The translations under genes were made by a program, and so were the position numbers. DNA of 34,709 nt from a virus. The stretch covers positions 1 through 34,709 of the IMG/VR virus record IMGVR_UViG_3300030104_000102. One strand, written 5' to 3'. Positions 15,404 to 30,107 of this stretch are shown one piece after another. Numbering within the stretch: the first letter of the stretch is position 1; every line of letters begins with the position of its first letter. The notes beneath the pieces are model-generated. The model worked only from the letters and a program-made list of their open reading frames with translations. It was not told the origin of the DNA and did not search any database.

Positions 15404-18367
15404 TTATTCTCCGTAACCGTATTTTAATTTTACTCTACCACCTGTGTTCATACCTGCTGGTCTTTGGAATCCTGGACCAAATCTTACAGTGTCTTCTGGA
15501 GTGACATCAGTAGTCGGTTCTTCTTCCTCTACACTTTCTCTATAGTATATCCTACCGAGTGCTCTCACTAAACTTTTTACCGCAGGACTTTTGAATACTT
15601 TATCACTTGTAATTGCTTCATACATCTTATCAGGGTTAGATAATAATTCAATAGTTTTAAAATCTTTTCTTCCTGTGAGTATACGCTTAGCAGCAGTCAT
15701 CACACGTCCTGGAGTAGTGAATAACCCTACATAAGCACGAGCTAAAGAGTTAAGTGCGTCAAGAGTAGGATCGTCAGCCTTTTTTACAGCTGATACTCTA
15801 GGATCATCAAAAGCTCTGAGTCTTTTAGCGATATCACCTAATTGTTCAGTAAATTTATCACCGAACCACACTTCTAAATTATCTTTATTATTGTTTATGT
15901 AATCTTGTAGTTGAGTACCATCATAAACTTTTTGATTAAGCGTTCCTCTTTTTTGTGTTTTTTCTTGTATATCTTTAAATATGTATGATTTATAAGCGTT
16001 TAATAAATCTTTACTACCACTATTATTAAGAGCGTCAAATACTTCTTTAGTGGCAGTTATTTTTCCAGGACTCCATGTATTTTTAAATAAATCTTCAGGT
16101 GATTTATAATTCCTAGCCACATCTGCTAAATTTGTATTTTTTTCTATGAGTTCTTTTGCTCTTTTTAGTTCTAAATCTCTTTGTTTAAATGTATTTATAA
16201 ATTGTTCAGCGTTAGTAAATTCTTGTATCTCGTCTTCATTAAAAAACTTTTTGATAATGTTGTCATTTTTAGCCATGAATGTTTCATGAGCTCTAGGTGT
16301 TTTAGGTCTCATAACACCACCCACAGTTTCTACTACCTCATCCATGTATGCGTTGCGTATGCCACCCTTTAAACCCAGTAATCCTGCTGTGTTTTCGGGG
16401 TCAAATAATATATCGTCTATAAATCCAGGAGATGTAAGAGTTCCGTCACCTTGTGGAGTAATATTATTTCTTAAAAAAGTAACAAAGCCATTATATGCAG
16501 TTTTATCACCTTGTCTATATAGATCATTACTGACTGATTGTAAATTAAGTAGTCTTTTTATTTGATCATTATTAAAAGTTTCCATCTTTTGTCTATACAG
16601 ATTCTCAGCTTCTATAAACCCTTTATAGGCTTCTGGACTACCACGATCTTTTAATGTTTTAGCTCGTATACTTTCTAAAACTTTTCTAAAATTTACCAGC
16701 TCGTCTACGTTGTTACCCATAGCTACGTTCTGCCTGATAATACTTCTCAAGTTAGATAAGTCTTGCGTAAATACTGTATCTGATTTTTTAGTGCCTTTTT
16801 CTATACTCTCAAGTATACCGTTCACTATCTTTTTATCTTGTGGATTAGCAAAGGCTTGTGCGTCTAATATATTTTTAAACCTCTGTGCAGGTTTTTTAAG
16901 TGTGCTATAATCATAAGCTTTTTCATTAGGTTTGAAGTTAGCTAGTTGTTTAGCATTTTCGTATGCTTCATCAACTGATTTTATAGCTGAATCTTCTGCA
17001 GCAGAAAATGTGCTCCTTATCTGTGCACCAGCTGTAGCTGGGTCTAGTGAACCATCAGCTATGCCTCTAAATATATTATCAGATTCTACACCTAATTCTA
17101 TTATGTCTCTTTCTGCTTGAACCAATTTAGGGCTAGTCTCTATAGTTTCTTGTGCTATTTCTCTTATTTGTTCACCTCTTGCAGCTCTAGTTGCAGCACC
17201 AGCTTCTTCTTCTACTAAATCACGTGTTATACCCTGTGCTTCAAAAGGTTGTGGAACTAAATCTCTTCCTGCTTGTTCTTGTGCTGTATAGATATCTCTT
17301 AATGCTTGAGCTTGCGGATCTTCTGTCTCTGCTATGTTTCTTAATCCAGCTTCTAAACCTTCTGCTGGAGAAGTCACCTCTACACCTTCATCTGCAGCTC
17401 TTATCACTACTTGAGGTGCAGTCATAGCAGCAGTGTCTTCGCCTGCTTGTTTAAGTGTTTCAAATGATTTTAAAAATTCTTCTTCTTTTAATAATGTATC
17501 TGGCACTTTAGCGACACCCATAGCAAGTTTTACTAATTTAAATACAGGTATAGCACCTATGCCGAATAATGCTGTCATATTAGCTTCTTTCATAGCCTGC
17601 CCTGTCATGTCGTAATCTTCTGGTAAATAGCCTTGCTCTTTTAGATAATTTAAATTATTTAATCTCCATACAAAAGTTGCTACAGTTTCACCAGCTACTG
17701 CACCAGCACCTATACCTAATGGACTTCCACCTGTCATTGCCCCACCAGCTATCCCGCCACCTATACCTGCGGTTATTTCTGCAGCGAGAGGCTCTACAAA
17801 GGCTAAAAAATCGCCTTTATTGAGTCCTGGAGGGTTAATTACAGTGGGCTGGTTATTATTTAGAGGGTCGTTAAAAATTAACTCTCTTGTGTTAGGTTCT
17901 ATCCTTACGTCATAGTCGTAAGTTCTAGGTATATTATAATCTTCTGCGTAGTTTTTCTGTAAAACTCTTGTTACATAATTAGGATCTACTCTTATATCTG
18001 GTGGTAGCAGTTCTATTTGTCGGATAGTGTCACCTTGCGCACCTCCTGTAAAATCTACCCCTGTGTACTCAGCCCTTGTTTGTGGTTCTGCTCTAGAGAG
18101 GTATGTTTCTACAAAGTATGGATCATCAGCTAGTATGCCTTTTTTAATAGCGTCATCCATGGCTTTTTTATTTTTCATATAATCTACCACAGGTGCAAAC
18201 TGACTCATGCTTTTAGTAGGCTCTGGTGCTTGATAACCAAACTCAGCTAGTTTTTGTTGATCTAGTTGTAATGCTGCTTGTGTTTGTGCTACTCCTGGAT
18301 TTACGAGTAGACCAGCTTCATACTCATCAAGCATTTTATCTAAATCTATTACGTCATTCTGTGCCAT
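15404..18367 (-). CDS. large probable internal virion (ejected) protein
   Basis: 987 residues, largely helical and charged, with a glycine/alanine-rich hydrophobic segment at about 197-230 (AGIGGGIAGGAMTGGSPLG) of the glycine-zipper type able to enter membranes. The C-terminus ends in GMNTGGRVKLKYGYGE, a glycine-basic ending I associate with marine phage structural proteins. No enzymatic motif is evident. By size, order and membrane-like segment it resembles the internal core proteins that podoviruses inject to form a DNA channel, but there is no sequence-level link to T7 gp14-16. It overlaps the next gene by one base (TAATG-type junction). Confidence 0.6.
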   Translation of the reverse strand: MAQNDVIDLDKMLDEYEAGLLVNPGVAQTQAALQLDQQKLAEFGYQAPEPTKSMSQFAPVVDYMKNKKAMDDAIKKGILADDPYFVETYLSRAEPQTRAEYTGVDFTGGAQGDTIRQIELLPPDIRVDPNYVTRVLQKNYAEDYNIPRTYDYDVRIEPNTRELIFNDPLNNNQPTVINPPGLNKGDFLAFVEPLAAEITAGIGGGIAGGAMTGGSPLGIGAGAVAGETVATFVWRLNNLNYLKEQGYLPEDYDMTGQAMKEANMTALFGIGAIPVFKLVKLAMGVAKVPDTLLKEEEFLKSFETLKQAGEDTAAMTAPQVVIRAADEGVEVTSPAEGLEAGLRNIAETEDPQAQALRDIYTAQEQAGRDLVPQPFEAQGITRDLVEEEAGAATRAARGEQIREIAQETIETSPKLVQAERDIIELGVESDNIFRGIADGSLDPATAGAQIRSTFSAAEDSAIKSVDEAYENAKQLANFKPNEKAYDYSTLKKPAQRFKNILDAQAFANPQDKKIVNGILESIEKGTKKSDTVFTQDLSNLRSIIRQNVAMGNNVDELVNFRKVLESIRAKTLKDRGSPEAYKGFIEAENLYRQKMETFNNDQIKRLLNLQSVSNDLYRQGDKTAYNGFVTFLRNNITPQGDGTLTSPGFIDDILFDPENTAGLLGLKGGIRNAYMDEVVETVGGVMRPKTPRAHETFMAKNDNIIKKFFNEDEIQEFTNAEQFINTFKQRDLELKRAKELIEKNTNLADVARNYKSPEDLFKNTWSPGKITATKEVFDALNNSGSKDLLNAYKSYIFKDIQEKTQKRGTLNQKVYDGTQLQDYINNNKDNLEVWFGDKFTEQLGDIAKRLRAFDDPRVSAVKKADDPTLDALNSLARAYVGLFTTPGRVMTAAKRILTGRKDFKTIELLSNPDKMYEAITSDKVFKSPAVKSLVRALGRIYYRESVEEEEPTTDVTPEDTVRFGPGFQRPAGMNTGGRVKLKYGYGE

Positions 18368-20838
18368 TATTGATTTAGTTGTTTTTGTATGTAATCTCTT
18401 ATGGGATCAAAGTCGCTTCCTAGAGTTTCTCGTATTGTTGTTAAATACCCTAGTTGTGAGTTTTGATCACCTTTACTTAAATACTCTACATATATGTCGT
18501 GTATTGTTTGATTACCATACCCAGAACGTTCACCACCTCCAGGAAGCACGGTTACTGATTGAGCATCTGTGTTAGCTGGTATATAGTTAGCATCTCTATA
18601 TGCGTTAGGACTTGTCTTGAGTTGTGCCTTTAGTTCTTCTATAGTGTATGGTGCGTCTCTAAATGGTTTAGAAGCATTATCTGTTGCCCTTACGTCACCG
18701 AACTGTTCTTCTATAAATGAGATTCTTGTTCCATCTGGCTTTGTAGTGCCCATAGCATATTTAAGTTCATTATCCAAAGCTATCTCATGTTTATTTATAA
18801 CAGATAATGTTAAATCATCCACTAAAGTTAAAAACTCTTTTGCAGAAGTAGCGAAAGCACCAGCTCTTTGTAGATATCTTTCCATATCTTTGTCTGATAT
18901 ATCACGGCTTTTTTGATTATCTGTAGCAGCACTTTGTAAAGCTAGTGTTAATACTAAACTGTTAACTCTTTTTCTTGATAAACCTGAGTTAAGTAAAAAT
19001 TTACCTAAATTACTGTTTGCTATTTGGTCATCAAATTGTTTTGCGTACTTATCAAAAGTTTCTATTCCTTCTCCTGGATCTAGTACACCGTTACCATTAG
19101 CATCTGTGTAAAGGTTGTATCCTTGTTCTTTATCTGTAAATATAGTTTTTAATTGATCAACTTCGTCAATAACTCGTTTACCAATAGTTGTTAAACCACC
19201 AGCAGTACCGAATGTTAGTGGAGCATTATTTTTTTCAGCTTCGTTAAATAGATCTACTATACTTTGACGTGTTTTAATTACTTGGTTTCTAGTTGTGTCG
19301 TTTTGTATTAAAAACTGTTGCACTCGTTTTCTTTCTTTACCTGCTAAACTTGCAGTCAAAGCAGATCCATCTCCTTTTACTAATATAGGTTCACCATTAG
19401 TTCCAAGAACCACCATGTTTTCTTCACCCACAGGAGCGTATAGCTCTCTACCTCTAGGCGACATTAGTTCTTGTGTAGAAACAAAAGTGGGTAAACCTGT
19501 AGCTTTTTCTATAGCGGATTTTATGCTTGCTGTTCCTACAGGTGCAGCTAAGATTCCTGGATTTTCATTTAAAAAGTTTTCTAATTCAACTTCTGACATC
19601 ATCATTGATTTACCGTTGACCATGTACAGCTTTTTACCTTTTGTTAAATTACCCTTTCTAACGATAAAACCTTCTGCTTGTTTATTTACAGCACCTGCTG
19701 AGGTAAGTATTTCAGTTCTAGCTGGTGCGTTATTATCTGGCTGACCGTCTTTATTTTCATCAACAAATAAAGTGTACTCTTCTGTATTTCCGTCTGCTGC
19801 TGTCCAAGGCTCAACTCTGTTTCCTCTTCTAGATACAGTATTTGCTTCTTCGTCTGTATAATACACAGGGTTAGCTTGATCATTTAATTTATATGGACTT
19901 CTATTAGCAGTCTTCAAAGCTCTTTCTAAAGCTTTTTGTTCTTTGACATCAGCTAAATACAGTTGCATAGCAAACTGATTTATATTTTGTTGTTGCTGTA
20001 TATCTAAACCTGTAAGAGTTTTTTCAAAATCTCTTTCCCCTTTTCTTTTTGTTATAGCATATTTAGATAGTGCTGATGATAATGCTGTTCCCCAGCTTTC
20101 ACCTTTCTCACCAGCTTGTATAAGTGCTGCACCTGCAACTAAAAAAGGTAAGCCTTCATCTGGTTTAGTTATAAGTTTTTTAATGTCATCTACATTATAA
20201 AATTGTGCTGCTGCGTCTTTATAAACCTGTAGTCTTTCTTTTGGGTCTAGTGTGTCATTTATCTCAGTCATAGCGTTGAAGGTTTGTAACGCTTCACTGT
20301 CATCTGCTCCTCTTGAGCCAGCACCTGCTGCAGAAGCCATCACCACTTTTTTAGTAGGATCATTTTCAGCATCTAATGCTTCTGCTTCTTCTTCACTTAG
20401 GTCTAAATTTAAATCTTCTAAACCAGATATTATGGCTCCCTCCGTCAAAAGACTTGTAGGAGGTAAATTAGGATCTATGTTAGTTTGTACTAAATCTGAT
20501 ATATTACCACCCTCTGCTACATAGTCGCTTAATTCTCTACTTTCATTATCTAATAAAGAATCTATACCTATGCCCTCTGGGGGTTGCTGTATGGCAGGTC
20601 TCTGTGGTTGTAACGTCATAGCCACTTGATCCTGTGGTATACCTGTTAATTGTGATATTTGATCTATAGCTAAACCACTACGAGCCAGCCTCATAACAGT
20701 TTGTTCAGGTGATTCATTAGCCATCACCATGTTTGTATTTTGATCTGTAACTACACCACCAAAAGGATTATTACGATCTCCTGTAATAGTAGTAACTCCT
20801 GGACCAATAAATGGACGGAAAGGGTATTTAGGCTCCAT
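18367..20838 (-). CDS. large probable internal virion protein
   Basis: 823 residues with no enzyme motif. The N-terminus is Pro/Gly/Asn rich (PFRPFIGPGVTTITGD), followed by LARSGLAIDQISQLTGIP, which resembles a short helix-turn-helix-like or Gly-x-Pro motif used in other phage structural proteins, then acidic and helical segments. A DxDxNG-like acidic loop at about residue 580 (TDANGNGVLDPGEG) has the look of an EF-hand/dockerin calcium site. It sits between the 987- and 437-residue proteins with 1- and 3-nt overlaps, so co-translated and probably co-packaged. Function unknown. Confidence 0.6.
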   Translation of the reverse strand: MEPKYPFRPFIGPGVTTITGDRNNPFGGVVTDQNTNMVMANESPEQTVMRLARSGLAIDQISQLTGIPQDQVAMTLQPQRPAIQQPPEGIGIDSLLDNESRELSDYVAEGGNISDLVQTNIDPNLPPTSLLTEGAIISGLEDLNLDLSEEEAEALDAENDPTKKVVMASAAGAGSRGADDSEALQTFNAMTEINDTLDPKERLQVYKDAAAQFYNVDDIKKLITKPDEGLPFLVAGAALIQAGEKGESWGTALSSALSKYAITKRKGERDFEKTLTGLDIQQQQNINQFAMQLYLADVKEQKALERALKTANRSPYKLNDQANPVYYTDEEANTVSRRGNRVEPWTAADGNTEEYTLFVDENKDGQPDNNAPARTEILTSAGAVNKQAEGFIVRKGNLTKGKKLYMVNGKSMMMSEVELENFLNENPGILAAPVGTASIKSAIEKATGLPTFVSTQELMSPRGRELYAPVGEENMVVLGTNGEPILVKGDGSALTASLAGKERKRVQQFLIQNDTTRNQVIKTRQSIVDLFNEAEKNNAPLTFGTAGGLTTIGKRVIDEVDQLKTIFTDKEQGYNLYTDANGNGVLDPGEGIETFDKYAKQFDDQIANSNLGKFLLNSGLSRKRVNSLVLTLALQSAATDNQKSRDISDKDMERYLQRAGAFATSAKEFLTLVDDLTLSVINKHEIALDNELKYAMGTTKPDGTRISFIEEQFGDVRATDNASKPFRDAPYTIEELKAQLKTSPNAYRDANYIPANTDAQSVTVLPGGGERSGYGNQTIHDIYVEYLSKGDQNSQLGYLTTIRETLGSDFDPIRDYIQKQLNQ

Positions 20839-25631: not shown

Positions 25632-26084
25632 TTACACCTCATACCAATCTTTACCCTCAAACAACAGAGACTCAGCTTCTCTTCTTCTTATTAACCCTTT
25701 TAAAACTTCACCACCAGCTTTGTTCCATCTTCTCATTTGTGCAGGAACTTCACTGTATTTTCCCTCATTGAGAACTTTTAACATAGTTGACTCTCCAAGA
25801 TTGGTTGGACCAAGATTATACACCCAACAAACTAAACCATCAAACTGACACTGAGTTAGCTCTACTTTGACCATGTCGTTTATATACCCTTCATATTCAG
25901 GCATCTCTTCTGCTAAAAGGTGTAAGGCTTCATCTTTATTAATTTTATCACCTTCTTTTACATCTTTAGTGTGTCCATAACCTATTGTCCAAACACCTAC
26001 AGAATCTTGATAAGCTTCTAGCTCACAACCTTCAAACTTTTTAATAAGAGCTAAACCTTCTTCAGATATCTTCATCTTAGTCAT
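25632..26084 (-). CDS. endolysin, GH24 T4-type lysozyme
   Basis: 150 residues with the T4 lysozyme catalytic triad spacing E-8-D-5-T: Glu18 in KKFEGCE, Asp27 in YQDSVGVW and Thr33 in TIGYGHT. WVYNLG and MRRWNKAGGEVLKGLIRRRE match the C-terminal lobe. It cleaves the glycan strands of peptidoglycan at the end of infection. No signal peptide or SAR anchor is seen, so export needs a holin, supplied by the gene overlapping it upstream (8 nt). A second in-frame Met at residue 4 could be the start. Confidence 0.95.
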   Translation of the reverse strand: MTKMKISEEGLALIKKFEGCELEAYQDSVGVWTIGYGHTKDVKEGDKINKDEALHLLAEEMPEYEGYINDMVKVELTQCQFDGLVCWVYNLGPTNLGESTMLKVLNEGKYSEVPAQMRRWNKAGGEVLKGLIRRREAESLLFEGKDWYEV

Positions 26085-26556
26085 TTTTGTCTGGTGAGTT
26101 AGATGCTCCGAAGTAAAAACTTATTATGGCTGATGCCAAACCTCCTAAGTACCCTAAAACTAAATTAATCAAAGCTTCTGAGTTTTGCTCTGGTGGTTGT
26201 ATAGTTACTAAAAATATGTACCCCATAAATCCACCTACTACAGCTATACCTATAATTCTGGCTGTCCAGTCTCTAGAAAAAGTTTGTCTAGCGTTTTGTG
26301 TATCTTGAACTTCTAGTTTAAACACATCCACCTCTAGCTCTTTCATTTTTAACTCAAACTCAGCCTCTGCCTTTTTAAGCTCTAGCATCTGTTCTGGAGT
26401 GGCGTTATCTATAGCTTTTTGTATTTCTTTAGGTTCATTCTTACAACCTAATACATCAGCTATCATATTAGCAGCCATCCCTCCCATCGGTCCACCGAGT
26501 GCTGTTCCTAGTGTTGGTGCTACTGATCCGACTAAATTTTTAAGTAATGCTTTCAT
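26077..26556 (-). CDS. holin, GTA/3TM-type
   Basis: 159 residues. An N-terminal glycine-rich hydrophobic segment (SVAPTLGTALGGPMGGMA), a charged helical middle (60-95), then two clear transmembrane helices at about 105-122 (IIGIAVVGGFMGYIFLVT) and 130-149 (LINLVLGYLGGLASAIISFY). The SRDWTARI before the first helix and FYFGASNSPDK after the second match the 3TM holin family found in gene-transfer agents and marine phages. It should form lesions in the inner membrane that release the endolysin encoded directly after it (8-nt overlap). A GAGGAGAGT Shine-Dalgarno lies upstream. Confidence 0.85.
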   Translation of the reverse strand: MKALLKNLVGSVAPTLGTALGGPMGGMAANMIADVLGCKNEPKEIQKAIDNATPEQMLELKKAEAEFELKMKELEVDVFKLEVQDTQNARQTFSRDWTARIIGIAVVGGFMGYIFLVTIQPPEQNSEALINLVLGYLGGLASAIISFYFGASNSPDKND

Positions 26557-26628
26557 ACTCTCCTCTCCGCCTTTATAAATTTTAGTAAGTTTAACTTAAT
26601 TCCACACATTTTTTTAGTATCTTGTTGA

Positions 26629-27750
26629 CTAACTACCTTGCTTAATTGTAATTGTATTAGATGAACCACCGTTTACTTTTATAACATTTTCTACACCATC
26701 TTGTAAAAGAACTAATGTGTAGGAACTAGATCCATCTAAATCTAATCGAAGTGATTGACCTACCGTTCTACGGACACTTATAAGCTGACCTGTTATTATA
26801 GTGGTTATCTGTGTATCTTTATCTTGACCTATATCTGTACCCGCTATAGTGATTCCTGTGGCAAGTTTGCTTAATTGATCCTCTTCTTCTTCGATGGCTA
26901 AAGCATCGATTATATTGAGTAAGTCTTCTAAAAAATTAACATCTAAGTAGTTTATATCGAGCTCTGTAAATTCTAGTTCTGATTCATTATTTAGAAAATC
27001 CTCAGCTAAAAAATCTATATCTAAATCATTAAAGTCTAAATAATCTGCTGTAGTTTGTTGTTGGTTACTTTCTTGTAAATCTTCTTTAATCTTTGGAGGA
27101 TTAACTATTAACATATTATCGATTAGTTCTAATGTTATGTCTAAAATAACAGGTTTAGTTGGTGCTTGTTCATATACTGTTGCTACAGTAGATTGATAAG
27201 GTTTATTAAGAACAACCATTCCCATGGCAGTTTCTACTGTTATTTCACCACTAGATATACCGTTCTCGTCTGGGAGCAATATGACAAGAGATCTACCCAG
27301 CTCGTCCACAGTGATTGTAAAATCCGTTCCCCTTATACCGATAGTTGCACTGTTTGTTCTTATTTTTATATTTTTCTTTTTTACTTTGTTTAATTTACCA
27401 GTAACAAATCTTGCAGTGCCTTTAGCAAAAGTTAAAGCCATTTTAGATTTATCAGGGTTAGGATCAAATACAAACTCATCTATTAACACTCTAGAGTTTT
27501 CTGTTAATCGTATCTGTGTCTCATCTATAAACGTAATACCCATACGTCCGTTAGCAGTTTCTACTTTGTCGTAACTAAGTATGCCGAAGTCTATTTCAGC
27601 ACCATATGGTTTATCCCTTACTACTTGGGCATTACCTCTCAGCTCACTTATAGAGCCTATATCAACAGCCTGTGCTTGTGCCTTGGTCGTTTTGAATAAC
27701 ACACACAGTTGAAGTGCTAGTGCCAGAACTAATAATCTTGAGCCAATCAT
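26629..27750 (-). CDS. secreted FecR-domain protein with curlin-like C-terminus
   Basis: 373 residues. A Sec signal peptide (MIGSRLLVLALALQLCVLF, cut near Ala28), then a FecR domain (about 30-160: SISELRGNAQV, TNSATIGIRGTDF, a hallmark motif of FecR-type periplasmic domains). Residues 236-280 are acidic with repeated LDxxFL/LDINYLDVNFL units. The last 35 residues contain LLQDGVENV (Gln350-x4-Asn355) and SSNTITIKQGS (Asn365-x5-Gln371), spacing used in curlin repeats. It follows the curlin-like gene and its signal peptide is coded in an 89-nt overlap with that gene. No Shine-Dalgarno is seen. A scaffold, nucleator or envelope anchor for the curli-like system is inferred; FecR is normally a signal transducer, but no sigma factor is here. 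Confidence 0.7.
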   Translation of the reverse strand: MIGSRLLVLALALQLCVLFKTTKAQAQAVDIGSISELRGNAQVVRDKPYGAEIDFGILSYDKVETANGRMGITFIDETQIRLTENSRVLIDEFVFDPNPDKSKMALTFAKGTARFVTGKLNKVKKKNIKIRTNSATIGIRGTDFTITVDELGRSLVILLPDENGISSGEITVETAMGMVVLNKPYQSTVATVYEQAPTKPVILDITLELIDNMLIVNPPKIKEDLQESNQQQTTADYLDFNDLDIDFLAEDFLNNESELEFTELDINYLDVNFLEDLLNIIDALAIEEEEDQLSKLATGITIAGTDIGQDKDTQITTIITGQLISVRRTVGQSLRLDLDGSSSYTLVLLQDGVENVIKVNGGSSNTITIKQGS

Positions 27751-28375
27751 TGTCTAAAGTGCTTTGTTGTTGAATATTGAATGTTCTATTGCTGCCTGTA
27801 TGGTCTAACCAAAAGTAACCACCAGCATAACCATCTCCATCATAAGTTACAGTATTATCAGAACCGTCTATATCCATATAATTAGTAGCACTATCTATAT
27901 CTATAGCTGATGTAATACTATTACTAGAACCATTAATTATCCAATCTAAGTCTAGTGTACTAGCTAAAGCAGTGGTGGCTTGATTTAAGGTAAAAGTGTT
28001 ACTATTGCCAGTAACGTCAACATTCACATTAGACGAGTCAGCACCGTATGTGTTTGTCTTATCTGTGTTCATGTTAAAAGTATTGCTGTTACCATCAAAC
28101 TCAAAAAAGCCAGTGTACGAATCTGAGACTATGTCGCCTAAGAATTTATTTGTGTCACCGATCTGATTTATGTCTAATGTTAACCCTGTACCGATTAAAT
28201 TTAAATCTGTCATAGTGCCTGCTACTGCATCAGCACCCCCTATAATATTGCCAGAACCAAGTTGTTCTAAATCTATGTTTGAATTAGAAGCACCTGAACT
28301 TTGATCAATAAAGATTTCATTATCTGCTGCATAAATCGGTAAACAGATAATAAATAAAAATAGATATTTTCTCAT
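27662..28375 (-). CDS. secreted curlin-like (CsgA/CsgB-type) protein
   Basis: 237 residues from the ATG at 28373-28375, preceded by a perfect GGAGG; a longer frame opens at a TTG that lies within the preceding gene. A short signal peptide (MRKYLFLFIICLPIYA) should be cut after Ala16 or 17. The mature part is rich in Asn, Ser, Thr, Gly and Asp. It has the curlin hallmark Q-x-G-x-x-N twice (QLGSGN 38-43; QIGDTN 71-76) and repeats of G-N-S-N-T-F strands about every 20-25 residues (95-100, 123-128, 149-153, 171-175, 194-199), predicting a beta-solenoid amyloid-type fold. It ends TVCVIQNDQGTSTGC. It is the likely export substrate of the CsgG/CsgF pair. The repeats are more diverged than in E. coli CsgA. 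Confidence 0.7.
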   Translation of the reverse strand: MRKYLFLFIICLPIYAADNEIFIDQSSGASNSNIDLEQLGSGNIIGGADAVAGTMTDLNLIGTGLTLDINQIGDTNKFLGDIVSDSYTGFFEFDGNSNTFNMNTDKTNTYGADSSNVNVDVTGNSNTFTLNQATTALASTLDLDWIINGSSNSITSAIDIDSATNYMDIDGSDNTVTYDGDGYAGGYFWLDHTGSNRTFNIQQQSTLDNDWLKIISSGTSTSTVCVIQNDQGTSTGC

Positions 28376-29172
28376 TGTTTTAACCTCCAATATTCTTTAT
28401 CTACACCTTCCCGTATAGTTTCTAAAACTGCTGTTTCTATAGCTATCTGTAGAGCTACGCTCATCGGTTCGTTTCTTACGTTTCCGCCCTCCACTTCTAT
28501 GAGCTCTGTTCCTTGACTTACAAACCTAAAAACATCACTATCTAAAGAAGCTGATAAAACAGTTTTAGTTACTAACACTTCTGTTAAAACTCTTCCTGTA
28601 CTTACAGAAACAGTTCTTAAACTTATTGTAATTATATCCTCTCTGTATTGTTTGGAAAAACCTATACCCAAGTTTCTAGCCCCTGCTCCACCTGAGCCAA
28701 TGTTAGCTTGATAAGATAAAACACCCCCTGTCATAATCATGTCACCAAATTTAAGGGGTAAAAGCTTTTGATCTTCATCAAATGTTTCTCTCGTTGACCT
28801 TATTAGTTGTCGTTCTTTTGTTACTGACTCTAATGATACTCTTTCTACAACTTCAAAAAAGTTTGAGTGTTTTAATGCTCTAATTAAATATGCATGAGGT
28901 GCTTGCGTTATCGCTGTAGCAAAAGTTGCATATTTAGCATTAGATCTACGTTGTCCAGTTTGATCTTTAAAATCATTAGCATAAACTGATATGACAGGTT
29001 TCCTTGCTGGTTCTTCTACATTAGCTAAATCTGTGTATAGTTTTTCTACCGAAGCTGGTTGAATGTACTTTATTGGTGGTATATTGTTTTCTAGTGGATC
29101 AATCATGAGAGCACAACTAGAAAGTAAAACCACCGATAGGCACGATAACTTCTGTAATGTTGCCTTCTTCAT
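28372..29172 (-). CDS. csgG: CsgG, outer-membrane curli secretion pore lipoprotein
   Basis: 266 residues (E. coli CsgG 277). Lipoprotein signal with lipobox LSSC (Cys20). Strong blocks shared with E. coli CsgG: ISVYANDFKDQTGQ (61-74), IGSGGAGARNLGIGFSKQY (158-176), VSVSTGRVL, VFRFV (214-218) and NEPMSVALQIAIETAV (234-249). CsgG assembles as a 9-subunit, 36-strand beta-barrel through which curlin subunits cross the outer membrane. At the constriction loop the E. coli Tyr51/Asn55/Phe56 line up with a region YATF (81-84): the Phe is kept, Asn becomes Thr, and Tyr is shifted or lost. It overlaps CsgF by 56 nt and the curlin gene by 4 nt (ATGA). A GAGGAGG site lies about 18 nt upstream, unusually far. 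Confidence 0.93.
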   Translation of the reverse strand: MKKATLQKLSCLSVVLLSSCALMIDPLENNIPPIKYIQPASVEKLYTDLANVEEPARKPVISVYANDFKDQTGQRRSNAKYATFATAITQAPHAYLIRALKHSNFFEVVERVSLESVTKERQLIRSTRETFDEDQKLLPLKFGDMIMTGGVLSYQANIGSGGAGARNLGIGFSKQYREDIITISLRTVSVSTGRVLTEVLVTKTVLSASLDSDVFRFVSQGTELIEVEGGNVRNEPMSVALQIAIETAVLETIREGVDKEYWRLKQ

Positions 29173-29593
29173 CAGTGATAGTAACTTTAACCTCCTCGTC
29201 TGTTATTTCATATTCTATGGTGTTACCGTCCAGTTCCATAGAACCGCTCTTTTGTTGGTCTTCACCGAACAAAGCTGACTCTACTTGTCTAGCTATGTTT
29301 GCATAGATTCTAGAAGTAAGATTGCGCATAAAACGAGCTTCTACAGTATTATTTTCTTCTCTTTCTATTTGGTCTTGTAATGCTTCTATTTCTTCTTTCA
29401 AAGCCTTTTTACGATTAGTCTCTTGATTTTCTATAGTTAAGTAGTGACTAGACGTACCTATACCGCTAAAAGACGGATTTTTAAATTCATGCACCATCTC
29501 GTCTGATTGTATGTGGTTTGTGAACAAAACTAATGCAGTCACTATGAGCATAGAAGAAATAAGCAGAAGTTCATTAGGTGTTTTAGGATCCAT
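29117..29593 (-). CDS. csgF: CsgF-like curli assembly factor
   Basis: 158 residues from the ATG at 29591-29593 with AGAGGA 7 nt upstream (a TTG one codon earlier is rejected). An N-terminal hydrophobic segment (about 9-26) serves as signal or anchor. Then VHEFKNPSFSGIGTSSHYL (34-52) matches the CsgF mature N-terminus, FQFRNPNFGG in E. coli, which plugs into the CsgG barrel to form a second constriction. LTSRIYANIARQVES (92-106) and IEYEITDEEVKVTITDEEG (126-144) match its helix and beta C-terminal parts. A charged coiled coil (61-82) replaces the usual linker. CsgF couples CsgG to the curlin nucleator at the cell surface. The 56-nt overlap with csgG suggests strict co-expression. Stop/start overlap TGATG with the upstream holin-like gene. 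Confidence 0.85.
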   Translation of the reverse strand: MDPKTPNELLLISSMLIVTALVLFTNHIQSDEMVHEFKNPSFSGIGTSSHYLTIENQETNRKKALKEEIEALQDQIEREENNTVEARFMRNLTSRIYANIARQVESALFGEDQQKSGSMELDGNTIEYEITDEEVKVTITDEEGNITEVIVPIGGFTF

Positions 29594-29943
29594 CAATCTT
29601 TCCTCTGATCGTCACGATCAGCTTTGGCTATTTTATTACTATCTATTAACTGTGGTACACCTAAGATAGTTTTGATAAGAGTATCTTGACGTATGATTTC
29701 ATTATCTAAAGATCTAACTCTGTCTATAAGAGCTACTAATATACCGTGTTGTGAATCTAATTTTGTACCAAGCCTTTGTTCCATCTGTTCTATTTGATCA
29801 GCAACTTTATCATCTAGCACATCTACTTTAGTTTCCATGCCATCTATAATTCTATTTATAAGTTTCCATATAAAGAAACCTAACCCTAGTGCTGCTGCGA
29901 TTGGAAAGCCTACCTCGTTAATAAAGGTGACTGCTTGATCCAT
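29593..29943 (-). CDS. small membrane/coiled-coil protein, holin-like (BhlA type?)
   Basis: 116 residues: an N-terminal hydrophobic helix (about 8-30: EVGFPIAAALGLGFFIWKLI), then a long charged coiled coil (LDDKVADQIEQMEQRL, ALIDRVRSLDNEIIRQD). One membrane helix plus a coiled coil is the layout of BhlA/UviB-type phage holins. It is the gene immediately before csgF, so a membrane protein of the lysis or export module is likely. It might alternatively be a spanin-like inner component, but no lipoprotein partner is visible except CsgG. Start and stop both overlap neighbours (TAATG, TGATG). Confidence 0.6.
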   Translation of the reverse strand: MDQAVTFINEVGFPIAAALGLGFFIWKLINRIIDGMETKVDVLDDKVADQIEQMEQRLGTKLDSQHGILVALIDRVRSLDNEIIRQDTLIKTILGVPQLIDSNKIAKADRDDQRKD

Positions 29944-30107
29944 TACTTACCTTTTTTCTTTTTCTTTACTCTTTTTGTAGTGTAAGCTTCGTTAACATTA
30001 GGTGTAGATTTATCGTCTGCTACAAACTGACCTTCTTCATCTCTGGCTCTGACTTTAACTTTTTTTGTTCCCGTTACTTTATCTACTATTCTGCTCCATA
30101 GTCCCAT
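29943..30107 (-). CDS. 54-residue lysine-rich protein, unknown
   Basis: A short gene with ATG at 30105-30107 overlapping the previous stop (TAATG) and stop TAA at 29943-29945 overlapping the next ATG (TAATG). The protein begins MGLWSRIVDKVTGTKK and ends in a basic tail (KRVKKKKKGK), with a central acidic patch (RDEEGQFVADDKS). Tight coupling on both sides makes it a real gene. The ending is like a DNA/RNA- or phospholipid-binding tail. No family recognised. Confidence 0.75.
   Translation of the reverse strand: MGLWSRIVDKVTGTKKVKVRARDEEGQFVADDKSTPNVNEAYTTKRVKKKKKGK

What the first reader, a model, noticed from the sequence alone, without database searches (positions are those of the whole stretch)
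26629..29593. A curli (type VIII secretion) cassette inside a phage lysis module
Seen: csgF, csgG, a secreted curlin-like protein and a secreted FecR-domain protein in four overlapping late genes. They are flanked on one side by a holin-like membrane protein and on the other by a 3TM holin and a GH24 endolysin. Known: CsgG is the outer-membrane pore and CsgF its coupling factor for amyloid export in bacteria. I recall reports of csgG/csgF in some marine phages, so the pair alone may not be new. The full block with a cargo-like protein and a FecR partner seems less described. Inference: the phage either makes an amyloid (adhesion, aggregation, superinfection block) or uses the CsgG pore to breach the outer membrane at lysis. 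No csgB, csgC, csgD or csgE is seen.
Basis: partly seen in the sequence, partly recalled or inferred. Interest (0 to 1): 0.93.

Follow-up and report, generated by a model that had tools for sequence, protein, structure and literature searches.

The report
Swappable curli-export cassette in marine phage
A marine phage carries a known kind of five-gene cassette for exporting a curli-like protein across its host's outer membrane; new here is that related phages swap it cleanly for an unrelated, unnamed secreted-protein cassette beside the lysis genes, which points to a job at the cell surface rather than in lysis.

Summary
In detail: CsgF (E 1e-19), CsgG (E 1e-47), a secreted curlin-like protein (CUR) and a secreted FecR-domain protein overlap in one late operon beside a GH24 lysozyme. 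As a block it is not new. Wittmers 2022 described the same order in pelagiphages, and Buchholz 2022 already proposed a lysis role.

Not found in the papers read:
(1) The cassette is a discrete unit (window 26557-29950) that includes the 'holin-like' gene. In relatives the same slot holds an unrelated three-gene secreted cassette (ALT). CsgG is absent from 34 of 34 ALT contigs and 5 of 5 ALT isolates; ALT is absent from 43 of 43 curli records.
(2) One FecR-domain allele occurs only where a CHASE2 adenylate cyclase is absent, as here (15 FecRs without, 56 with, no exception), although FecR's own tail and the neighbouring genes recombine.
(3) The gene in the position of the published 'histidine kinase' is too small (about 93-116 aa) to be one.

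Best reading: a late curli-like exporter acting at the host surface. A lysis pore is unlikely: 22 cassette loci also carry Rz/Rz1 spanins, and ALT phages keep the same lysis genes without CsgG. No fibre has been shown.

The parts
26557..29950 (-). Whole exchangeable cassette (borders from comparison with L092)
   Evidence: blastn of L092 against the window: homology stops at 29951 and resumes at 26556, the start of the 3TM gene, then 86.9% over 4.6 kb
29593..29943 (-).
   Evidence: PHROG 18771, unknown function, 7e-16; no kinase domain; lost with the cassette
29117..29596 (-). CsgF; ORF from TTG, a nearby ATG is possible
   Evidence: PF10614 1.4e-19; N-terminal FxNPxFxG motif kept
28372..29172 (-). 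CsgG outer-membrane pore lipoprotein (lipobox LSSC by eye)
   Evidence: PF03783 1.2e-47; solved E. coli CsgG 2e-41
27662..28390 (-). CUR, secreted curlin-like beta-solenoid, putative cargo
   Evidence: Melnitz orthologue passes PF07012; GxxN motifs; AlphaFold solenoid
26629..27750 (-). Secreted FecR-domain protein; domain allele of the cyclase-less type
   Evidence: PF04773 1.2e-12; allele analysis
27136..27615 (-). FecR domain segment (residues 46-205) that assorts with the absence of the cyclase
   Evidence: One change on the domain tree against 6 on the tail tree
26077..26556 (-). Flank, not cassette: 159-aa membrane protein (possible holin)
   Evidence: PHROG 1544, unknown function, 2e-27; kept in ALT phages
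25632..26084 (-). Flank, not cassette: GH24 endolysin
   Evidence: PF00959 2e-47

Best explanation
This is a phage-encoded, CsgE-less type VIII (curli-type) export cassette of an HTVC023P-related podophage, transcribed with the late structural and lysis genes. CsgG forms the outer-membrane pore, and CsgF still inserts its N-terminal peptide in the barrel (inferred from motif conservation). CUR is exported through it and probably forms a curli-like fibre or patch on the infected cell before lysis (inferred). FecR is a periplasmic or secreted partner of the exporter. In most relatives its FecR domain is matched to a CHASE2 adenylate cyclase that would report to the cytoplasm (inferred); this phage belongs to a lineage without the cyclase and carries the FecR allele that goes with that state. 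The cassette sits in a swap slot beside the lysis genes, where relatives carry an unrelated secreted-protein cassette. Its job is therefore most likely at the cell surface in late infection (adhesion or aggregation, exclusion of other phages) rather than breaching the outer membrane.
For: Families and order. CsgF N-terminal motif and CsgG conserved across phages. Curlin link of CUR. Purifying selection. FecR allele and cyclase coupled in 65 of 65 loci; every lysozyme-anchored new locus agrees; one change on the FecR-domain tree against 6 on the FecR-tail tree and 8-9 on the CsgF, CsgG and CUR trees; a single cyclase-less clade is rejected for the tail (p-AU 0.0003). Exchange with the ALT cassette at exact borders; no co-occurrence in the records searched. 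Spanins beside the cassette.
Against: No experiment shows a fibre, and Buchholz 2022 saw no clumping of cells infected with Melnitz, which has the module. CUR of the window has no direct Pfam curlin hit. FecR could not be modelled (pLDDT 38). Myophage FecRs are of neither allele, so the coupling is shown only within the podophage group. Fisher p 4e-11 is inflated by shared ancestry, and the independent-pairs test had too few pairs. Late expression is inferred from gene position only.
Confidence: 0.55

Rival explanations
1. CsgG/CsgF act in lysis: the pore depolarises or perforates the envelope like a pinholin or a spanin (Buchholz 2022; first reader).
For: A lysozyme gene is near in 90 podophage-type cassette loci; no convincing Rz/Rz1 pair in the window; position in the late operon.
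Against: 22 cassette loci also have Rz/Rz1. Phages of the same type with ALT in place of CsgG keep the same 3TM and lysozyme genes. HTVC008M and Melnitz have the module without a lysozyme gene nearby. It does not explain conserved CUR and FecR.
Confidence: 0.15
2. The ungated CsgG pore serves uptake of nutrients or cofactors during infection (Zaragoza-Solas 2020, Wittmers 2022).
For: No CsgE gate in the record; oligotrophic hosts; CsgG well conserved.
Against: Does not need CUR, CsgF or FecR, which are under equal constraint; does not explain exchange with a cassette of secreted proteins without a recognisable pore.
Confidence: 0.12
3. The module exports CUR as a soluble or anchored surface protein that blocks other phages or binds the host's envelope, without forming an amyloid.
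For: CUR folds as a confident beta-solenoid in the model, with two conserved C-terminal cysteines in the podophage type; weak curlin repeat signal.
Against: The myophage orthologue has true curlin repeats; CsgF, which couples export to fibre nucleation in E. coli, is kept.
Confidence: 0.18

Closest known systems
Pelagiphage T8SS module (Wittmers 2022, PMC9599517; HTVC023P-type podophages and pelagimyophages)
   Same: Gene order small upstream gene, CsgF, CsgG, CsgA/B-like, FecR; no CsgC/D/E; HTVC008M shares CsgG at 43% and FecR at 42% identity
   Different: No adenylate cyclase and no second curlin gene in the window; beside lysis genes; the gene at the 'HK' position is a small 1-TM coiled-coil protein; exchange with ALT is not described in the text I read
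csgGF of Methylophilales phage Melnitz (Buchholz 2022, PMC9004378)
   Same: CsgF, CsgG, curlin-repeat protein and FecR in the same order
   Different: Melnitz is a T4-like myophage with cyclase and second curlin, away from a lysozyme gene; its authors doubt CsgG-CsgF pairing, whereas the N-terminal CsgF motif argues for it
E. coli curli system csgBAC-csgDEFG
   Same: CsgG pore and CsgF with a conserved N-terminal motif
   Different: No CsgC, D or E; cargo far diverged; FecR added

Membership tests
Type VIII (curli) secretion | CsgG outer-membrane pore | tested here: met
   PF03783 1.2e-47; solved E. coli CsgG 2e-41
Type VIII (curli) secretion | CsgF coupling factor | tested here: met
   PF10614 1.4e-19; N-terminal motif kept
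Type VIII (curli) secretion | Curlin-repeat cargo | tested here: inconclusive
   No direct PF07012 hit in the window; Melnitz orthologue passes the cut-off; solenoid model
Type VIII (curli) secretion | CsgE gate (not present in all curli systems) | tested here: not met
   No PF10627 match in the record, E. coli control found
Type VIII (curli) secretion | Secretion and fibre formation | not testable with these tools
   Needs expression or imaging
Pelagiphage T8SS module (Wittmers 2022) | Order small gene, CsgF, CsgG, CsgA/B-like, FecR | tested here: met
Pelagiphage T8SS module (Wittmers 2022) | Downstream adenylate cyclase (frequent, not universal) | tested here: not met
   No cyclase between FecR and the 3TM gene in the window
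FecR sigma-factor regulator (iron signalling) | Cytoplasmic N-terminal domain, TM helix and a cognate sigma factor | tested here: not met
   Signal peptide by eye, then only the FecR domain is matched; no sigma-factor gene beside it
Histidine kinase (29593-29943) | Kinase catalytic domain | tested here: not met
   116 aa, no kinase match in Pfam or NCBIfam
Holin (29593-29943) | Membership in a holin family | tested here: inconclusive
   PHROG holin hits only at E 0.004 and 0.02, best match is PHROG 18771 of unknown function; it leaves with the cassette

The most novel reading that the evidence does not exclude
Marine phages of several types carry one of two mutually exclusive late cassettes: a curli-type exporter, or an unrelated, unnamed set of two secreted proteins plus a small membrane protein (ALT). 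The two are functional equivalents that remodel the outside of the infected cell. Within the curli type, FecR and a CHASE2 cyclase form a matched signalling pair that is gained or lost as a unit.
Probability: 0.42. Interest if true: 0.78.

Novelty: new member of a known kind. Interest (0 to 1): 0.56.

Why it matters
Phage curli has been a puzzle since 2020: SAR11 hosts have no curli system and nobody knows what the phage gains. A natural swap with a second cassette gives a test, because whatever the curli cassette does, the ALT cassette should do too, and ALT is present in cultured pelagiphages (HTVC023P, HTVC033P, HTVC115P, Baldr, Mosig). The result weakens the lysis hypothesis and turns FecR and the CHASE2 cyclase from a listed 'iron regulator' and a separate cyclase into a candidate matched signalling pair.

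Tried and rejected
FecR structure: AlphaFold failed (pLDDT 38.5), so no fold is claimed. FecR tail as a curlin repeat: a home-made repeat HMM hits 59 of 74 related FecRs, but only at about 5 bits while shuffles reach 8.6; not claimed. CUR fold search: no Foldseek hit under E 0.001; beta-helix matches to SufB and pectinases (VIA Z up to 17.6) are taken as a shared solenoid shape only. CsgF profile against the PDB: no match. Bacterial source: the one genome scan mostly returned phage-like contigs inside MAGs (L076-L082, L085) and lone csgG genes without FecR or cyclase, so the origin was not resolved. Homology of the small TM proteins of the two cassettes: none found. CsgG as a replacement for a missing spanin: rejected, because spanin-bearing relatives keep the cassette. 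Promoter and terminator scan: nothing above shuffles. Two whole-record searches exceeded a limit of 50 loci and were repeated with fewer.
Full report
What is there. The window is a whole IMG/VR viral contig of 34,709 bp. On the minus strand, with overlapping reading frames, lie a 116-aa protein with one predicted TM helix and a coiled coil (29593-29943), CsgF (29117-29596), CsgG (28372-29172), a secreted curlin-like protein CUR (27662-28390) and a secreted FecR-domain protein (26629-27750). They are followed by a 159-aa membrane protein (26077-26556) and a GH24 endolysin (25632-26084). Pfam gives CsgG 1.2e-47, CsgF 1.4e-19, FecR 1.2e-12 and lysozyme 2.2e-47. CsgG aligns with the solved E. coli pore over nearly its whole length. 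Signal peptides, TM helices and the CsgG lipobox (LSSC) are read by eye. A tail protein has distant relatives in HTVC023P, HTVC027P, 023Pt_psg01 and Roseobacter phages, and the primase in 023Pt_psg01, so the phage is most likely a podophage related to the HTVC023P type. Its host is not known.

Is CUR a curlin? By itself it has no Pfam curlin hit. Its orthologue in Melnitz, in the same gene position, passes the Curlin_rpt cut-off with three stretches, and the orthologue in L076 scores just under it. The window protein has seven GxxN motifs against 2.7 expected (p 0.009), and AlphaFold gives a regular beta-solenoid with pLDDT 77. I treat it as a diverged curlin-like cargo, not as a proven amyloid.

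Already known. Zaragoza-Solas 2020 (PMC7029224) reported csgF and csgG with further genes in pelagimyophages. Wittmers 2022 (PMC9599517) described the module HK, CsgF, CsgG, CsgA/B, FecR, then often a second CsgA/B and a cyclase, in HTVC023P-type podophages and pelagimyophages. Buchholz 2022 (PMC9004378) proposed a role in lysis timing. So both the block and the lysis idea are published. HTVC008M and Melnitz carry the full form. The Wittmers main text does not mention holin, endolysin, lysozyme or CHASE2.

Survey. CsgG of the window recovers 72 IMG/VR loci. The order 1-TM gene, CsgF, CsgG, CUR, FecR is kept in nearly all loci long enough to show it. Most then have an adenylate cyclase of about 580 aa (CHASE2 2e-26, cyclase domain 2e-21), which the window lacks. 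The 'histidine kinase' of the literature corresponds by position (one or two copies before csgF) to small proteins of about 93-116 aa without a kinase domain. This identification is by position only, since I did not have that paper's sequences. Lysis genes are near in this podophage group: 90 cassette loci have a lysozyme 2.1-4.8 kb from csgG, 63 of them with the 159-aa membrane protein and 22 with an Rz/Rz1 spanin pair (PHROG 739 and 812). Some contigs were fetched twice, by CsgG and by lysozyme, so these are counts of loci, not of independent phages. In the two myophages no lysozyme gene is near. The cassette genes show strong purifying selection (median dN/dS 0.05-0.11, with dS near saturation). 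The CsgF N-terminus keeps an F-x-NP-x-F-x-G motif in the podophages, with small changes elsewhere. From general knowledge this stretch enters the CsgG barrel in E. coli, so its conservation argues against the suggestion that phage CsgG and CsgF no longer pair.

FecR and the cyclase assort together. FecR has three segments: signal region (residues 1-45), FecR domain (46-205) and tail (206-373). The 15 loci without a cyclase, the window among them, share one domain allele: 89-97% identical to the nearest other member and only 61-67% to any cyclase-bearing locus. Signal regions and tails are, by contrast, 78-98% identical to the nearest cyclase-bearing locus. On the domain tree the cyclase state changes once (support 100); on the tail tree it changes 6 times, on CsgG 8, CUR 9 and CsgF 8. 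Holding the cyclase-less rows together is rejected for the tail (p-AU 0.0003) and for CsgG (0.02). A new set fetched with the lysozyme instead of CsgG agrees without exception: every locus without a cyclase scores 25-27 of 27 diagnostic residues for the allele, and no locus with a cyclase scores more than 14. In total there are 71 distinct FecRs, 15 without and 56 with. The profile of L040 against L032 shows mostly 95-100% identity through CsgF, CsgG and CUR, 50-67% in the FecR domain, 93-98% again over most of the tail, and then a cyclase of about 1.7 kb present in one only: two separated differences that travel together. The simplest reading is that the FecR domain and the CHASE2 cyclase work as a pair and mismatches are selected against. 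Caveats: ancestry is shared, so Fisher p 4e-11 is inflated; the independent-pairs test had too few pairs; myophage FecRs belong to neither allele.

The slot is swappable. Two lysozyme-anchored relatives lacked the curli cassette. In its place they carry three other genes (ALT): a 336-aa secreted protein with an N/T-rich stretch and a conserved Cys-containing C-terminal domain, a secreted protein of about 690 aa with an acidic middle, and a 115-aa 1-TM coiled-coil protein. Against L092, window homology stops at 29951 and resumes at 26556, exactly the start of the membrane-protein gene, at 86.9% over 4.6 kb. The same clean exchange is seen between L171 and L028. This sets the cassette borders and shows that the 1-TM gene belongs to the cassette. 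A scan with the 692-aa protein gives 68 loci, many in the same three contexts where curli cassettes sit (before the 3TM gene and lysozyme, between 3TM and tail genes, before Rz/Rz1), none with csg genes. At record level, CsgG is absent from 34 of 34 ALT contigs and from 5 of 5 ALT-bearing isolates, and ALT is absent from 43 of 43 curli records including complete HTVC008M and Melnitz, while all five positive controls were found. ALT homologues occur in cultured pelagiphages HTVC023P, HTVC033P, HTVC115P, HTVC202P, Baldr and the T4-like Mosig, almost all annotated as hypothetical. One site can hold only one cassette, so exclusivity at the slot alone is weak evidence of equal function; the absence elsewhere in complete isolates is the stronger part. 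Most contigs are fragments.

Mechanism. Shown: gene content, order, conservation, exchange, FecR-cyclase assortment. Inferred: CsgG/CsgF exports CUR in late infection; CUR acts outside the cell; FecR is a periplasmic partner that in relatives signals through the cyclase; in the window's lineage FecR is kept without a cyclase, so it probably also serves the exporter. The lysis reading is disfavoured because spanin-bearing relatives keep the cassette and ALT phages keep the same lysis genes without CsgG. Uptake through an ungated pore does not explain CUR or the exchange. What the surface product is for (adhesion, aggregation, exclusion of rival phages) cannot be told from sequence, and the one culture observation found no clumping.

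Verdict. Observation confirmed; as a system it is a further member of a published kind. The exchange with an unnamed cassette and the matched FecR-cyclase pair are what I did not find in the papers read, and they carry the interest.

Noticed in passing
L092:1016-4376, L169-L235; HTVC023P gp45-48 (L237:5770-8349), Mosig 202-200 (L236:1250-4313): Unnamed three-gene secreted cassette (ALT) that replaces the curli cassette in the same slots and is shared by several pelagiphage types; its first protein has a highly conserved Cys-containing domain (NCER-x-KL ... GMKVA ... LCQD-x-RVF ... GTPCP).
   Followed up: partly
OR671924.1 (Roseobacter phage CRP-810) 45908-46249: The conserved domain of the first ALT protein lies in a gene annotated as OmpA family, possibly an anchor to peptidoglycan.
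   Followed up: no
L238:11324-11773 (HTVC115P gp46): A gene annotated as lysine acyltransferase of the toxin-activating type lies a few genes from the ALT cassette, next to a 685-aa hypothetical protein.
   Followed up: no
L076-L082, L085: Contigs filed under Maricaulis, Pelagibacter, Flavobacteriaceae and Rhodobacteraceae MAGs carry the phage-type curli cassette and look like phage contigs in bacterial bins; host labels from such bins are unsafe.
   Followed up: partly
OR851715.1: A 1.5-kb unannotated record named Salmonella phage S.Kent 1-2-1 holds a csgG-like gene; probably a host fragment rather than a phage genome.
   Followed up: no
window 15404-20838: Two very large late proteins (987 and 823 aa) with no PHROG match; the 823-aa one also has no match in the phage collection; probably virion or ejection proteins.
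   Followed up: no
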